In this document: positions 376 through 44,010 of the stretch, one piece after another
Numbering within the stretch: position 1 is the first letter of the stretch
Layout of the letters: the number at the start of each line of letters is the position of its first letter
DNA from: Chitinispirillum alkaliphilum
GTDB taxonomy: Bacteria > Fibrobacterota > Chitinivibrionia > Chitinivibrionales > Chitinispirillaceae
DNA: 64,000 nt
Assembly: GCA_001045525.1 (NCBI GenBank)
Contig: LDWW01000001.1
Coordinates: 248,001 to 312,000 of the forward strand
Direction of reading: 5' to 3'
The notes under the pieces: model-generated
What the model was told of the DNA's origin: nothing
What the model saw: the letters and a program-made list of their open reading frames with translations, nothing else
Databases searched by the model: none
Made by a program: the position numbers and the translations under genes

Positions 376-3303
376 TTAGTTGATTTCCCTCAGAATAACC
401 TCTTCTGAATAATCATCACCACTTTCTGTTTCTGTTTCTGTTTGAATGATTTCATCTTCGGTTGTTTTTCCCGGGACAGAACAGTCCTCTGTTTCCGGAG
501 TGACCCTGTGGAGATAGTTTTCGTATTGCGAGTAGAAACCATTTGGAGCCTTTATGCCGCCTTTGTGCAAAAGGCCCATAGTGAGAAATTTGTGAAGAGA
601 TTTACCGTCTCTTGATCCGGTATAATGCTGGTTTGTTTCGCCTATGCATGCGACGGTTAGATCCCGTATTTCGGTAGGGCCGCTGCCTCTTATCTTTGAC
701 ATGTCAACCCGTATCACAGCATTCCACAACCCGTAATTGGTTCGCTCCTGACTTGAGGGTTCGACATTGAATGGTCTGAAAATCCGGTCAGTTGTTCCAC
801 TTTTGGCAAAATTGGAAATAGGTTCATTGATGTAGTAGGCATCTTGATGGAAATGAGCATAGCTGTAGACCGGATCATTGAAATCTGGTGTGTATGCGAT
901 GTCGTAATCTGTCAGACCGTCCCATCTGTGTGAGACCAGTCTTTTGTGCAACCCAAGCAGGGTTGGGCGAATGTTGTTGATATCAGAGAACGGACGGTAG
1001 CGCCTGATAGTATCCCTGACTGCAACGGGGTTATTGTTAAGTTCAATAGATTTGATTACAAGTGAGGGGCGCTGGGCAGGTTTTTCGATTATCTCATTAT
1101 TGTAAAGAACATTGAACAGATGCATCTGTTCGTAAAGTGACATTTCGAGTGTACCAAGAGCAACAGAATACAGACTGTCAGATACAACCATTCTGCTGTT
1201 GCCGGATCTTATGGTGTCAACCTCTGCACCCACTATTCTCGAAAGTTCTCTGTAGACCCTTACGCCGGTAACGTAATTGAGTTTCAGCTCATCTCTGAGC
1301 TTTGAGTATGCCCCGATTCTGTACAGTAAATTGACCAGAGGAAAGGCATCCGGTGCGATTTCTCCCTGCTTGAAAAGCTGCTGGTTGAGTCTGTAAATAG
1401 TTTCCACACCAAGGATGTTATTTGAAGTGTTGAGATGGTCAAAAACGTACTGGCAACCTTCCAGGGACCTGCTGTAGTTGTGAACCGGATAGCCTCTGCC
1501 TCTGACCGAAGTTTCTTCGAAAATCACTCCTACGGGTGTTCCGCCCCTGTAGTTTATCTCTCTTCGCCAGGGGACATCTTCGGTAACCGGTTTGGCATCT
1601 GTCCATTTACTGTATGGTTTGAACACCCCAAGGTCATAGTTGAGTGCATTAATAATGGGCTTTGCAAGAGCTGATCCATTAGGTGTTCTGTTTCTTAACA
1701 GCCCGGTAAGACGTGAACCCAGCTTGTCTCTTGAATAATAGGCAAGCAGTTCCCCTGTTCGGGAATCCATTATGGAATAGGCATAATATTGACCGTCAAC
1801 ATGACCGGGTCTGCGCTGATAATTAAAAACACTTCTTCGGTATTCGTTTTTCCCAAGATTTCTGTAACGGATATTCTGCAAAAGAGTATCACCGGGCTGG
1901 AGAGTGGTAATATAGCTTGATCCCGGTTCAGAAAAATCAGTTGGCTCTGTTATGATACTCTGTTTTCTGATTGTATCCTGTGGTTTTGAGTCAAGGGTGA
2001 TATTTTCACCGTAACTTCCGATTCTTATCTCGGTAGTGATAATCGTGTCCTGACCGTAACCTCTGTTATCCACAAGCTCTTCGAGCTTTCTTTGAAGCGG
2101 CAGATCAATTGTAAGCTGGATGTTGAGATTGCCTTTGCGCCGGACAAGTGAATTTGGGTTGATAAGATCCATTTCCCGCAACTGCTGCTCTGTGGATCCC
2201 TCGCGTCTGAGAGTCTGAAGCCAAAATTCATTGGCCAGGTCCACAAGCGGCCCGTGCTCAGCGGTAACCCGGTTAGGCCTCGAAAATGTAAGGTTCTCAA
2301 TCTCACTGAGCACTTCCTCCTGTTTCTCTTCATCCCATCCAAGCGCAGCGGCAATCCTTGGCATATCGATTCTGCATTGGGAGACAATTCTTGAATTTAC
2401 ATTTCTGCCCCATTTTACCATCCTTGCCAGATAGACACATTCTGCATCTGTTAGCTCATGGAGTTCCTTGTTGAGAAGTCCCCTGGCTATATCTTTAAAC
2501 CCAATGAGTCCATAGTCGCTTGTTACACAATGGTTCATGTATACCTCAAGAATCTCATCGGCAGAATAGAGTTTTCTCATTGCCACTGCAAGTCTGAGCT
2601 CACGGACTTTTCTGTCTACGTTGGTGCTGACCTGACGTTGTCCGGCCTCATCCAGTCTGGAGATGAAGAGTTTTGCCACCTGTTGGGTTATGGTGGATGT
2701 GCCCCTTGGGGTCGCTCTGCGGAAGGAGAATATCGAGCGCTGAATTGCCATCAGGCCTGCTCTGACAAAACTGTCATATTCAATACCCAGATCATTTGTA
2801 TAGAAATTCTGATCTTCGGCAGCAACCAGTGCTTTTATTAGTGTGGGAGGAAACTCTTCGATTCTGGCTCTTTGGTGATTGGTCTTTATACTTGCAATTG
2901 ATTGACCATTACGATCGCTGATCTGTATGGTGTTGGAGTATTCCCTGATCTCACTGAGGAGTTTAACCACAGACAGTGAGGGATAATCCGCCAGTGTTAT
3001 CCCGTCCACGACCTTGACCTGATCCATTTCGTCGTGCTCCCCCTCGGTGATACGACGTGCCTCAAGTTCCATCGCCTTTTCGGCTAAAACATCCTGCCAC
3101 CCGGCTCCATACTCCTTTGAAAGCAACCCTCTCTCTTCCAGGTTTACAAGTTTTTCACCCCAGTGTTCAAAGTATCTGTTGAAGGCGTAGCGGCCTGCAA
3201 AATAGGCAACAACAGAACCTAAAACAGCAGTAAGCAGCAGTATTGAACAAATAATCAGAAGTTTTCCAAATAATGAGCGTTTCTTTTTTACCTTTTCAGT
3301 CAT
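376..3303 (-). CDS. Class A-like penicillin-binding protein (GT51 glycosyltransferase plus transpeptidase-like domain)
   Basis: Bifunctional-type peptidoglycan synthase of 975 residues, anchored by one N-terminal membrane helix (about 13-37) with the rest in the periplasm. The GT51 glycosyltransferase region (about 135-330) carries the catalytic-Glu motif AAEDQNFY (E163) and GTSTITQQVAKLF (201-213). The C-terminal half resembles a penicillin-binding transpeptidase: an SNN box at 627-629 and a KSGTTD box at 834-839 are visible. The expected SxxK active-site tetrad is not clean: the best candidate reads GSALAKP (543-549), which puts three rather than two residues between Ser and Lys. The domain may therefore be a divergent or inactive transpeptidase. 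The last 50 residues are acidic, Glu/Thr-rich and low-complexity. The gene stands alone, convergent with the unidentified gene at the window edge. Confidence 0.85.
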   Translation of the reverse strand: MTEKVKKKRSLFGKLLIICSILLLTAVLGSVVAYFAGRYAFNRYFEHWGEKLVNLEERGLLSKEYGAGWQDVLAEKAMELEARRITEGEHDEMDQVKVVDGITLADYPSLSVVKLLSEIREYSNTIQISDRNGQSIASIKTNHQRARIEEFPPTLIKALVAAEDQNFYTNDLGIEYDSFVRAGLMAIQRSIFSFRRATPRGTSTITQQVAKLFISRLDEAGQRQVSTNVDRKVRELRLAVAMRKLYSADEILEVYMNHCVTSDYGLIGFKDIARGLLNKELHELTDAECVYLARMVKWGRNVNSRIVSQCRIDMPRIAAALGWDEEKQEEVLSEIENLTFSRPNRVTAEHGPLVDLANEFWLQTLRREGSTEQQLREMDLINPNSLVRRKGNLNIQLTIDLPLQRKLEELVDNRGYGQDTIITTEIRIGSYGENITLDSKPQDTIRKQSIITEPTDFSEPGSSYITTLQPGDTLLQNIRYRNLGKNEYRRSVFNYQRRPGHVDGQYYAYSIMDSRTGELLAYYSRDKLGSRLTGLLRNRTPNGSALAKPIINALNYDLGVFKPYSKWTDAKPVTEDVPWRREINYRGGTPVGVIFEETSVRGRGYPVHNYSRSLEGCQYVFDHLNTSNNILGVETIYRLNQQLFKQGEIAPDAFPLVNLLYRIGAYSKLRDELKLNYVTGVRVYRELSRIVGAEVDTIRSGNSRMVVSDSLYSVALGTLEMSLYEQMHLFNVLYNNEIIEKPAQRPSLVIKSIELNNNPVAVRDTIRRYRPFSDINNIRPTLLGLHKRLVSHRWDGLTDYDIAYTPDFNDPVYSYAHFHQDAYYINEPISNFAKSGTTDRIFRPFNVEPSSQERTNYGLWNAVIRVDMSKIRGSGPTEIRDLTVACIGETNQHYTGSRDGKSLHKFLTMGLLHKGGIKAPNGFYSQYENYLHRVTPETEDCSVPGKTTEDEIIQTETETESGDDYSEEVILREIN

Positions 3304-41150: not shown

Positions 41151-41345
41151 ATGGGATTTATCGGCACGCAGGAATTATTGATAATTCTGCTCATAGTAAT
41201 TGTTTTGTTTGGGGCAAAGAAGATTCCTGAACTGGCCAGGGGATTGGGCAATGGTATCAGGGAGTTCAGAAAAGCTTCTTCTGAAATCGACAAACCCATT
41301 GATACAGGGATGGACAAGCAGAGTAATGAGGAAAGTGGTAATTAG
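41151..41345 (+). CDS. tatA: Twin-arginine translocase subunit TatA
   Basis: A 64-residue inner-membrane protein with one N-terminal helix (about 8-22), the [20 protein letters not shown] hinge and amphipathic helix, and a short polar tail. It forms the pore-like assembly that moves folded proteins. CGGAGG precedes the ATG. First gene of a tatA-tatC-tatB-like operon. Confidence 0.93.
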
Positions 41346-41391: not shown

Positions 41392-42120
41392 ATGAAATCA
41401 TGCTCAGACAGAGAGATGACTTTCCTGGAACATCTGGAAGAGTTGCGGTGGGTATTGATAAAAATTGCTGCATCTATTCTGCTTTTTGCTATACCATCAA
41501 TTCTTTACTGGAGAGAGATTTTTGACCTCCTGATGGTATTTCCGCTTCGCTTCACTGCGCCAACACCTGTTTTTATCTATACAAATCCCGCACAGGGTAT
41601 AGTGCTCAGTGTAAAAATAGCCCTTGCTTCAGCGGTCATATGTGCTGCGCCTTTTATATTCTATCAAGTATGGAAATTTCTCTCTCCGGCCCTGAAAACC
41701 GGGGAGAAAAGATTACTGCTTCCGGTTGCGGTTGCCTCGACACTCCTTTTCCTGGCTGGAGTGGCCTTTTGTTATTTTACTCTTCCATTTGTGCTGCAGT
41801 TTCTTATCGCCTATGCATCCGGAATACTTGAACCGATGTTCAGGGCTGATGAGTATCTTGGGTTTATGCTCAAGATCGCACTCTCTCTGGGATTTGTCTT
41901 TCAATTACCGGTAATATCCTTCATCCTTGCACGTAGCGGTATAATAACCCATTCATTTCTTATCAGAAATTCAAATTACGCAGTAATCACCATGTTCATA
42001 GTTGCAGCCCTCCTGACACCACCGGATATCTTCTCTCAGATTATGATTGTGCTGCCGCTGTCGCTGCTTTATGGCTTGAGTATAGTTATCGCCCTGATTG
42101 CCGGGAGAAAGTCCACTTGA
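41392..42120 (+). CDS. tatC: Twin-arginine translocase subunit TatC
   Basis: A 242-residue inner-membrane protein with six hydrophobic segments. The signature MTFLEHLEELRWVLIK lies at the N-terminus and the first periplasmic loop contains the conserved FTAPTPVFIYTNPAQG region. It recognises twin-arginine signal peptides. ATG 41392 is used; ATG 41416, directly before TFLEHLEELR, is an alternative. The stop overlaps the start of the next gene (TTGA), so the two are translationally coupled. Confidence 0.95.
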   Translation: MKSCSDREMTFLEHLEELRWVLIKIAASILLFAIPSILYWREIFDLLMVFPLRFTAPTPVFIYTNPAQGIVLSVKIALASAVICAAPFIFYQVWKFLSPALKTGEKRLLLPVAVASTLLFLAGVAFCYFTLPFVLQFLIAYASGILEPMFRADEYLGFMLKIALSLGFVFQLPVISFILARSGIITHSFLIRNSNYAVITMFIVAALLTPPDIFSQIMIVLPLSLLYGLSIVIALIAGRKST

Positions 42121-42932
42121 ACACAGGAATTGGTTTTTCAGAGATAATTCTGATATTCACTCTTGTTCTGCTTTTATTCGGATCAAAGGAGCTGCCACGG
42201 TTTTTCAGGGAGGCTGGCAGGTTGATCTCTTTGTTCAGAAGCTACAGAGATCAAATCAAGAGTGAATTTGACAAGGTCACCTTGCCGTTAGAATCGCAGT
42301 ATAGTGAAAAAGAAAAAAAACAGCAGCTCAGGGCTCATTTCTCAAGCCGTAGAGACCGTATCGAAAAGAAAAAGCAGACAGAGCTTTCTTCAATGATTCA
42401 TGCATCGATACTCTCACTCAGTTTATTCAACTCCTCACGTTCGGTTATGGTATATTGTAGCAAGGGTTCAGAAGCGGATACTTTCGATCTGATAGATGAA
42501 ATGCTCTGCAGGGGAAAGAGGGTGATAGTTCCTTTCTGCAGAGATGGAGGCAATCAGATTGGTATTGCGGAGATCAAGGACTCTTCGAAGGAACTGGTCA
42601 GGGGTAAGTATGGTATACCAGAACCGCTTGAGAGTCTTAGAGATAATTTTCTTAAAAGTGATATCGACATTGTTCTGTGTCCCGGAGTGGCCTTTGACAG
42701 ATACGGTATGCGCCTGGGTTGGGGCGGAGGGTACTATGACAGATTTTTAGGTGAGTTAAAGGGTAAAACCCCGATAATTGGCCTCGCATTCAATTGTCAG
42801 ATCAGCTCTGTTCCGCTCCCAGTGAATAGGCACGACATCTCAGTTGATGAGGTAATTACAGAATCGGGACCCCTGTTGGGCTTTTGTAAACCAGATTTGG
42901 AACCACACTATCCTGTTTCGGAGTTGACTTAA
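42117..42932 (+). CDS. Fusion of a TatA/TatB-like membrane domain and 5-formyltetrahydrofolate cyclo-ligase
   Basis: A 271-residue protein joining two functions. Residues 1-60 are a TatA/B-like unit: membrane helix 8-22, FGSKELPRFFREAGRLISLF hinge and amphipathic helix. Given tatA and tatC just upstream, this is the likely TatB. Residues about 64-252 are 5-formyl-THF cyclo-ligase (ATP-dependent conversion to 5,10-methenyl-THF), with KKQQLRAHFSSRR at the start and the motif RYGMRLGWGGGYYDRF (194-210 region). The frame is continuous, with no stop or good internal start between domains. Start is TTG 42117, overlapping the tatC stop. The enzyme half would be tethered to the inner face of the membrane. 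I know of no role linking the two activities. Confidence 0.88.
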   Translation: MNTGIGFSEIILIFTLVLLLFGSKELPRFFREAGRLISLFRSYRDQIKSEFDKVTLPLESQYSEKEKKQQLRAHFSSRRDRIEKKKQTELSSMIHASILSLSLFNSSRSVMVYCSKGSEADTFDLIDEMLCRGKRVIVPFCRDGGNQIGIAEIKDSSKELVRGKYGIPEPLESLRDNFLKSDIDIVLCPGVAFDRYGMRLGWGGGYYDRFLGELKGKTPIIGLAFNCQISSVPLPVNRHDISVDEVITESGPLLGFCKPDLEPHYPVSELT

Positions 42933-43748
42933 ATGGGCACGATTCTTTTGGGTGTTCTCATTGTGCTGCTTTTGATTTTGCTCATTGCCCTCTTTGGCAC
43001 TTTTACATTTCGCCTCTTCTTATCATATGACAAAGGTTTCAGGGGAAAGGTTTATCTCAAATGGATCAGCTCTTTTTTCATTTCCTTAGAGTATGATACG
43101 GGGGAGGAGCTGGTATCAGGAAGAATTTTGGGGAAGCGATTTGGTGCAAAAGAAGACAGGGGTGAAGCTGAAGAAGACTCTGAATATCAGTTTAGTGAGC
43201 CTGACACGGAGAAAGAGAGTGCACCTGTTGAAGATTATATACCGGAAAGGCCTCAGGAGGATTATGTTCCTGATACGGGGGATAAGATTGAAACCAAAGA
43301 TGAGCCCATTGAAAAAAAAGAGAAAAAAGCGAAGAAAAGAGATGGTGCCCAAAAAAAGGATAATCTGATTTTTATGATCCGCAATAAGCGATGGAGGGAT
43401 AAGATTCTTAACTGGCTTAAGCGGGTGATGAGGAGTTTACTCCGTCTGATAAAATTTGAACGGTTAAAAGTGTATGGAAAAGCGGGCTTTTGTGATCCTG
43501 TACTCACAGGGAAGATGTTTGGGTATTTGGTAGCCGTAAAATCTGCCATGGCTTTGGAGAAACGCAGTTATCAAATCAATATAGAGCCGGTTTTTATGAA
43601 AGATCATATAGAGTTTGAATCTGAGGTGGGTTTCAAATCCTCGCTCTGGAGGGTGTGTGTTCCGCTTCTAACTGCAACTTTTCTCTTCCCCTATATCTCC
43701 ACCTACAGACTTTGGAAAAAGGCTGGGAAAAAAGATCTGAAATCCTAA
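42933..43748 (+). CDS. DUF2953-like membrane protein
   Basis: A 271-residue protein of unknown function. One N-terminal helix (about 3-25) is followed by a short beta-rich part, a long low-complexity charged linker (about 75-145; runs of Glu then Lys) and a C-terminal region (KVYGKAGFCDPVLTGKMFGY; INIEPVF) that resembles DUF2953 proteins, known in Firmicutes near sporulation genes but not understood. A second hydrophobic segment lies near the C-terminus. The ATG follows the previous stop without a gap, so it belongs to the tat operon transcript. Confidence 0.6.
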   Translation: MGTILLGVLIVLLLILLIALFGTFTFRLFLSYDKGFRGKVYLKWISSFFISLEYDTGEELVSGRILGKRFGAKEDRGEAEEDSEYQFSEPDTEKESAPVEDYIPERPQEDYVPDTGDKIETKDEPIEKKEKKAKKRDGAQKKDNLIFMIRNKRWRDKILNWLKRVMRSLLRLIKFERLKVYGKAGFCDPVLTGKMFGYLVAVKSAMALEKRSYQINIEPVFMKDHIEFESEVGFKSSLWRVCVPLLTATFLFPYISTYRLWKKAGKKDLKS

Positions 43749-43899: not shown

Positions 43900-43935
43900 A
43901 AAAATAAGGGACTCTCACATTGTGAAAGTCCCTTA
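43900..43935 (-). terminator. Rho-independent terminator of tRNA-Glu
   Basis: AAGGGACTCTCACA (43907-43920) pairs with TGTGAAAGTCCCTT (43921-43934) with one mismatch; on the minus strand a TTATTTTTTTG tract follows. The 150 bp between it and the DUF2953 gene show nothing else. Confidence 0.8.
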
Positions 43936-44010
43936 TGGTACTCCCTAGGGGAATCGAACCCCTGTTGCAAGAATGAAAATCTTGAGTCCTAACCACTAGA
44001 CGAAGGGAGC
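43936..44010 (-). tRNA. tRNA-Glu (anticodon TTC) with encoded CCA
   Basis: Minus-strand cloverleaf: acceptor GCTCCCT/AGGGAGT (G-T first pair), D-loop CTAGTGGTTAGGA, anticodon stem CAAGA/TCTTG with loop TTTTCAT (anticodon TTC), T-arm AGGGGTTCGATTCCCCT, discriminator A. CCA is encoded at 43938-43936. Confidence 0.95.

What the first reader, a model, noticed from the sequence alone, without database searches (positions are those of the whole stretch)
42117..42932. TatB-like domain fused to 5-formyltetrahydrofolate cyclo-ligase in the tat operon
Residues 1-60 have the TatA/B helix-hinge-helix, and residues 64-252 form an intact cyclo-ligase with the GWGGGYYDRF motif. The start overlaps the tatC stop and there is no separate tatB. 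Joining protein-export machinery to a folate repair enzyme is unexpected. The folate enzyme may only ride on the Tat anchor, or Tat activity may be coupled to one-carbon metabolism.
Basis: partly seen in the sequence, partly recalled or inferred. Interest (0 to 1): 0.72.

Follow-up and report, generated by a model that had tools for sequence, protein, structure and literature searches.

The report
TatB fused to folate-repair enzyme
In most lineages of this bacterial phylum that have the Tat protein-export machine, its TatB subunit is one protein with a folate-repair enzyme; the join is real and old, both halves look functional, and the likeliest reading is a working TatB with the enzyme tethered to the membrane as its tail.

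Summary
Observation confirmed. One ORF (42117-42932, TTG start overlapping the tatC stop by 4 nt) encodes a minimal TatB (TM helix, hinge, amphipathic helix; residues 5-55) joined to a complete 5-formyltetrahydrofolate cyclo-ligase (MTHFS, residues 68-249). It is the genome's only MTHFS, and there is no other tatB. It is not an error: the same fusion, ordered tatA-tatC-tatB::MTHFS, occurs in 45 genomes, 24 genera and 10 families of the phylum (24 of the 29 genera that have tatC). The TatB Glu is invariant in 44 of 44 proteins, and both halves evolve under purifying selection. The halves separate naturally: lineages that moved MTHFS elsewhere keep a short tatB behind tatC, and Tat-less lineages keep MTHFS without an intact TatB domain. 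Obligate coupling of Tat to one-carbon metabolism is therefore unsupported. In one large genus (Fibrobacter-like) MTHFS left the tat operon but kept a TatB-derived hydrophobic anchor, under purifying selection even in Tat-less species, so membrane tethering of the enzyme may itself be selected. No paper in the library searched describes the fusion. Best reading: a bona fide TatB whose variable tail was replaced by a tethered, active MTHFS. New variant of known kinds.

The parts
41151..41345 (+). tatA (64 aa), the only other TatA/B-type gene of the genome
   Evidence: Pfam TatA_B_E 71.5 bits; TIGR01411 tatAE 69.2 (cut-off 53.9) against tatB model 33.6
41392..42120 (+). tatC (242 aa), with LLTPPDIFSQ carrying the equivalents of E. 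coli TatC T208 and Q215, which contact TatB E8
   Evidence: Pfam TatC 198.3 bits, TIGR00945 176.9 (cut-off 132.7); alignment to TatC structures; T208/Q215-E8 contact from PMC10197872
42117..42932 (+). tatB::MTHFS fusion gene (271 aa, TTG start, 4-nt overlap with the tatC stop)
   Evidence: conserved in 45 genomes
42117..42281 (+). TatB part: TM helix residues 7-21 with invariant Glu9, hinge FGS at 21-23, amphipathic helix 26-55
   Evidence: AlphaFold2 model, pLDDT about 70-88 here; A1 invariant column E9; TIGR01410 tatB matches 41 of 44 fused proteins, tatAE 22 of 44
42282..42317 (+). linker (residues 56-67), ending in an A-rich stretch with a run of 8 A at 42313-42320 that reaches into the first MTHFS codons
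   Evidence: run not conserved in relatives; linker diverges fastest between the two species of the genus
42318..42863 (+). MTHFS (5-formyltetrahydrofolate cyclo-ligase) domain, residues 68-249, with K68/R72, E119, R199, D208
   Evidence: Pfam/NCBIfam; Foldseek to 2jcb E 6.9e-18 and human MTHFS 3hy6 E 1.1e-16; model pLDDT 90-98; alignment to 3hxt
42933..43748 (+). DUF2953 gene starting directly after the fusion's stop; probably the last gene of the same transcription unit
   Evidence: Pfam DUF2953 25.6 bits, cut-off 22; terminator-like 15-pair hairpin at 43904-43936

Best explanation
A single membrane protein. Its N-terminal ~55 residues are a minimal but genuine TatB (TM helix, hinge, amphipathic helix) that sits in the Tat receptor complex with TatC. 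Its C-terminal domain is an active 5-formyltetrahydrofolate cyclo-ligase held on the cytoplasmic face of the membrane in place of TatB's variable tail. The fusion is old in the phylum (present in both main clades of its MTHFS tree) and probably arose by joining two adjacent, translationally coupled genes. The enzyme is mainly a tethered passenger: each half does its ordinary job. Shown: the fused frame, its spread, conservation and selection on both halves, co-occurrence with tatC, natural separation of the halves. Inferred: TatB activity, enzyme activity, topology, the way it arose, and that the protein is not cleaved.
For: 1) Fusion in 45 genomes/24 genera/10 families, which is 24 of the 29 genera with tatC. 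2) All 45 fusion-bearing genomes have tatC, and no examined Tat-less genome has an intact TatB domain on MTHFS. 3) TatB Glu9, the equivalent of E. coli TatB E8 that contacts TatC T208/Q215 (PMC10197872), is invariant in 44/44 proteins down to 21% identity; this genome's TatC keeps both contact residues. 4) dN/dS in pairs of fused genes is 0.02-0.38 for the TatB half and 0.11-0.20 for the MTHFS half where computable. 5) Start overlaps the tatC stop in 40 of 42 scorable loci, 29 by exactly 4 nt. 6) Where MTHFS sits elsewhere, a short tatB of about 52-60 residues remains right behind tatC (g10, g4, f7 g17, g33), so TatB is wanted by itself. E. coli TatB cut to residues 1-51 still exports AmiA/AmiC (PMC9436932), about the length kept here. 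7) It is the genome's only MTHFS, with full fold and catalytic positions.
Against: No experiment shows TatB or MTHFS activity, or that the full-length product persists. The window protein alone scores below the curated TatB cut-off (35.8 against 56.5) and about as well on some TatA-type models. No convincing Tat signal peptide was found in this genome with two models; the single weak hit is a PEP-CTERM protein.
Confidence: 0.7

Rival explanations
1. The N-terminal half is no longer a TatB but just a membrane anchor for the folate enzyme; export runs on TatA and TatC alone, as in minimal TatAC systems.
For: Window protein is below the TatB model's cut-off. In the Fibrobacter-like genus g24 exactly this seems to have happened: 41 of 41 MTHFS proteins examined keep an N-terminal hydrophobic helix, with an FGS-type hinge in most, the Glu is mostly lost, the gene has left the tat operon, and the anchor is still under purifying selection (dN/dS about 0.08-0.15 in the better-diverged close pairs), also among Tat-less species.
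Against: In the fusions proper Glu9 is invariant, the gene is coupled to tatC, intact fusions are confined to genomes with tatC, and several lineages with a free MTHFS keep a separate tatB in its place.
Confidence: 0.13
2. The two domains are functionally coupled: MTHFS regulates Tat, serves as its quality-control tail, or localises one-carbon chemistry to the translocase.
For: Conserved across a phylum; MTHFS stands where E. coli TatB has the alpha3/alpha4 helices that carry its chaperone-like quality control (PMC9436932).
Against: The pair has come apart in g10, g4, f7 g17, g33 and g24 with Tat and MTHFS both kept; MTHFS persists in Tat-less genomes. MTHFS in this phylum has also joined an RNase D-like protein and a membrane protein, which points to a promiscuous passenger.
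Confidence: 0.1
3. The ORF yields separate products as well: free TatB by slippage at the A run or proteolysis, or free MTHFS by internal initiation.
For: Run of 8 A at the junction; a -1 slip would end TatB 10 residues later; a TTG at codon 56 with a weak upstream AAGG.
Against: Any homopolymer run of the lengths scanned occurs in only 12 of 44 fusions, and an internal start with a nearby ribosome-binding motif in 16 of 44, at differing positions; nothing is conserved. Proteolysis cannot be tested here.
Confidence: 0.07

Closest known systems
TatB (Sec-independent translocase subunit; TIGR01410, Pfam PF02416; E. coli TatB, TatB of PDB 9DZZ/9E03)
   Same: TM helix, hinge, amphipathic helix, conserved TM Glu, place in the tat operon, partner tatC with the polar-cluster residues
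   Different: No alpha3/alpha4 helices or free tail; a complete metabolic enzyme follows the amphipathic helix; gene order A-C-B instead of A-B-C
5-formyltetrahydrofolate cyclo-ligase / MTHFS (TIGR02727, PF01812; PDB 2JCB, human 3HXT-3HY6; E. coli YgfA)
   Same: Whole domain, fold, and catalytic positions
   Different: Normally a free soluble protein; here attached to a membrane helix. In family f8 of the phylum the first helix with the ATP-binding Lys/Arg positions is missing
Domain-fused Tat components, e.g. the double TatC of Halobacterium (PMC13186574)
   Same: Tat subunit altered by natural gene fusion
   Different: There the partner is another Tat subunit; here it is an unrelated metabolic enzyme
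tatC neighbourhoods with 5-FTHF cyclo-ligase genes in some Bacilli (PMC3827258, figure legend)
   Same: A cyclo-ligase gene lies near tatC
   Different: Separate genes listed as neighbours; no fusion reported

Membership tests
TatB | Single TM helix, hinge and amphipathic helix at the N terminus | tested here: met
   AlphaFold2 helices 7-21 and 26-55; Pfam TatA_B_E over cut-off
TatB | TatB rather than TatA by curated model | tested here: inconclusive
   Window protein: tatB 35.8 against tatAE 29.4, but below the 56.5 cut-off, and one TatA-type model scores 36.6; over the family tatB matches 41/44 and tatAE 22/44
TatB | Conserved TM glutamate (E. coli E8) that binds the TatC polar cluster | tested here: met
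   Glu9 invariant in 44/44; contact from PMC10197872; TatC keeps LLTPPDIFSQ
TatB | Encoded with tatA and tatC, distinct from tatA, and co-occurring with tatC | tested here: met
TatB | Needed for Tat export | not testable with these tools
   needs complementation
5-formyltetrahydrofolate cyclo-ligase | Full-length domain over curated cut-off | tested here: met
   TIGR02727 164.2 against 84.9, profile 1-182 of 182; PF01812 1-186 of 186
5-formyltetrahydrofolate cyclo-ligase | Catalytic and ligand positions (human K10, R14, E61, R145, D154; the role of these residues is from memory) | tested here: met
   Aligned to 3hxt as K68, R72, E119, R199, D208; E119, R199, D208 invariant in 44/44
5-formyltetrahydrofolate cyclo-ligase | Fold | tested here: met
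   Foldseek 2jcb E 6.9e-18, TMt 0.89; 3hy6 E 1.1e-16
5-formyltetrahydrofolate cyclo-ligase | ATP-dependent conversion of 5-formyl-THF to 5,10-methenyl-THF | not testable with these tools
   needs an enzyme assay

The most novel reading that the evidence does not exclude
Holding the folate-repair enzyme at the membrane is itself a selected function in this phylum: TatB first served as both translocase subunit and tether, and in Fibrobacter-like bacteria the tether outlived its Tat role, so that a former TatB helix is now a dedicated membrane anchor of MTHFS.
Probability: 0.3. Interest if true: 0.72.

Novelty: new variant of a known kind. Interest (0 to 1): 0.55.

Why it matters
It would be a naturally evolved translocase subunit that carries a metabolic enzyme, kept over a phylum. 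That makes a clean test of how little of TatB is needed, and of whether its tail has a job that a folded enzyme can replace. The Fibrobacter-like lineage offers a separate question that is directly testable: why a small soluble folate enzyme should be kept on the membrane, with an anchor that came from a protein-export machine. It also means that genome annotation should not call tatB missing, or a TatAC-only system, in this phylum.

Tried and rejected
Sequencing or assembly artefact: rejected by 45 genomes with the joined frame. Second tatB in the genome: none. Conserved slippage or internal start at the junction: not conserved. Tat genes near MTHFS in other phyla: none within about 4 kb in 80 loci, but that set is rich in groups that may lack Tat, so it does not show that the fusion is confined to this phylum; searching other phyla by genome was not possible ('of' accepts only genome handles, and those in hand are of this phylum). 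Tat substrates by PF10518 and TIGR01409: only one weak hit, which is a PEP-CTERM protein, so use of Tat in this genome is not shown. Literature: no paper on the fusion in the open library; subscription papers and InterPro architectures could not be checked. One search failed on a term-length rule, as did two look-ups in papers, later repeated with longer terms.

Full report
WHAT IS THERE. The ORF 42117-42932 (+) is real and open: 271 residues with a TTG start inside the last codons of tatC, overlapping the tatC stop as TTGA. Residues 5-48 match Pfam TatA_B_E (28.8 bits, cut-off 21) and residues 68-249 match the whole 5-FTHF cyclo-ligase profile (150.8 bits, cut-off 27); NCBIfam calls the second domain MTHFS_bact (164.2, cut-off 84.9). 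The gene before it is tatC and the one before that is tatA; a DUF2953 gene follows directly, and a 15-pair terminator-like hairpin lies at 43904-43936. In the whole genome (4.43 Mb, 98.9% complete) there are two TatA/B-type genes, tatA and this one, and one MTHFS, this one.

IT IS NOT AN ERROR. A search of 60 relatives found the joined protein in many genera. Reading the loci gave the same order, tatA-tatC-tatB::MTHFS, again and again. In all, 45 genomes in 24 genera and 10 families of the phylum carry it. Of 40 genera searched, 29 have tatC, and 24 of those 29 have the fusion; my count joins with the loci read. The start overlaps the tatC stop in 40 of 42 scorable loci, in 29 by exactly 4 nt. 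In one genome (G003) tatA sits directly in front of the fusion and tatC is on another contig.

BOTH HALVES LOOK FUNCTIONAL. In 44 aligned fusions, some only 21-30% identical to ours, the invariant residues are Glu9 in the TatB part and E119, P139, E169, P189, F193, R199, G201, G203, D208, Q228, D240 in the MTHFS part. Glu9 stands where E. coli TatB has E8, which contacts TatC T208 and Q215 (PMC10197872); this genome's TatC reads LLTPPDIFSQ at that place and so keeps both (the residue correspondence is my reading of the alignment). The curated TatB model matches 41 of 44 fusions and the TatA/E model 22, though the window protein itself stays below the TatB cut-off. The AlphaFold2 model shows a TM helix 7-21, a hinge, an amphipathic helix 26-55, and an MTHFS domain with pLDDT 90-98; its best matches in the PDB are MTHFS structures, 2JCB at E 6.9e-18 and human 3HY6 at 1.1e-16. 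Aligned to human MTHFS, K10, R14, E61, R145 and D154 correspond to K68, R72, E119, R199 and D208. Pairs of related fusions give dN/dS of 0.02-0.38 for the TatB part and 0.11-0.20 for MTHFS where computable.

NATURE HAS ALREADY SEPARATED THEM. (a) In g10, g4 and f7 g17 a separate tatB of roughly 52-60 residues follows tatC directly, while MTHFS lies elsewhere as a soluble protein. (b) In g33 a separate tatB likewise follows tatC, while MTHFS is fused to an RNase D-like protein (3'-5' exonuclease plus HRDC). (c) Genomes with no tatC and no TatA/B match, such as G006, G034 and G037, keep MTHFS without any TatB domain. (d) All 45 genomes with the fusion have tatC. So an intact TatB half goes with Tat, and MTHFS does not need it. 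The MTHFS tree puts fused proteins in both of its main clades of this phylum (30 rows, support 98/85; 34 rows, 99/97), and places the split g10+g4 proteins as sister to the fused proteins of f1, f2, f3, f5 and f6. An old fusion with later separations fits this, but two fusions from a common neighbouring arrangement are not excluded, and the tree does not infer direction.

THE ODD REMNANT. In genus g24 (Fibrobacter-like) MTHFS is no longer in the tat operon, yet all 41 proteins examined begin with a hydrophobic helix, in most followed by an FGS-type hinge and a charged stretch (maximum mean hydropathy over 15 residues 2.48 or more). Some keep a Glu 13 residues before the hinge Gly, the same spacing as Glu9 to Gly22 here; most have lost it. 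The helix is present in Tat-less members too and evolves with dN/dS of about 0.08-0.15 in the better-diverged close pairs. These Tat-less members are closely related, so they stand for few independent losses of Tat. In g28 a 34-35 residue TatB-like ORF lies directly before a soluble MTHFS in two genomes. The plainest account is that the former TatB helix has become, or has stayed, a tether for the enzyme.

HOW IT MOST LIKELY WORKS. The first ~55 residues act as TatB in a TatBC receptor complex, and MTHFS hangs from the amphipathic helix in the cytoplasm, where its substrates are. This needs no new biochemistry: E. coli TatB cut to residues 1-51 still exports AmiA and AmiC, while its further helices carry a folding-quality-control function (PMC9436932). 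Here MTHFS stands where those helices would be. Whether it took over any of that role is unknown. That the enzyme is active, that the protein stays whole, and that TatB works in this form are inferences.

ALTERNATIVES. Free TatB or free MTHFS from the same ORF is possible in single species (a run of 8 A lies at the junction here), but homopolymer runs occur near the junction in 12 of 44 fusions and internal starts with a nearby ribosome-binding motif in 16 of 44, at differing places. An anchor-only role for the N-terminal half is the likely end state in g24 but does not fit the window's lineage. Obligate coupling of Tat to one-carbon metabolism is not needed by any observation and sits badly with the separations.

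NOVELTY. Both domains are well known. Their fusion is not described in any paper found; one paper lists a cyclo-ligase gene among tatC neighbours in Bacilli (PMC3827258). The library lacks most subscription papers, and no architecture database could be read, so it may be annotated somewhere. I call it a new variant of a known kind.

Noticed in passing
L145:1644-3395 (-), L146, L179: In genus g33, and probably g31, MTHFS is fused to the C terminus of an RNase D-like protein (DNA_pol_A_exo1 plus HRDC), a second, unrelated fusion of the same enzyme.
   Followed up: partly
L144:2411-4780 (+): In family f11 MTHFS opens a 790-residue frame whose rest is a multi-span membrane protein (weak DUF2142); whether this is one gene was not checked beyond an open frame of similar length in a second genome.
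   Followed up: no
L117-L124, L154-L173: MTHFS of family f8 lacks the first helix of the domain, with the ATP-binding Lys/Arg positions, yet keeps the rest of the active site and a confident core fold.
   Followed up: partly
L175:451-591 (+), L178:567-707 (+): A 34-35 residue TatB-like ORF directly before MTHFS in g28, apparently the fusion split again by a stop.
   Followed up: partly
L008:2277 (-), L012:1501 (+): In genus g11 the codon at the expected start of the fusion is ATC, preceded by a strong ribosome-binding motif; possibly a non-standard start codon.
   Followed up: no
L129 near 1101 (-), L019:1068 (+): In-frame TAG inside the MTHFS motif in G159 (GKGF*DRY) and an early TGA near the C terminus in G033; sequencing error or decay not decided.
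   Followed up: no
L006, L007, L008, L012, L023, L024 (ends of the fusion ORF): Many fusions end in ...PAG or a final Gly after a variable tail, without an obvious reason.
   Followed up: no
L195:1255-1560 (-) and 1723-3045 (-): The genome's only Tat-signal-like match is the end of a PEP-CTERM protein, next to an exosortase-like membrane gene; no clear Tat substrate was found.
   Followed up: partly
L187, L188: Two genomes of g29 (G147, G055) carry a second tatA-tatC pair besides the fusion operon.
   Followed up: no
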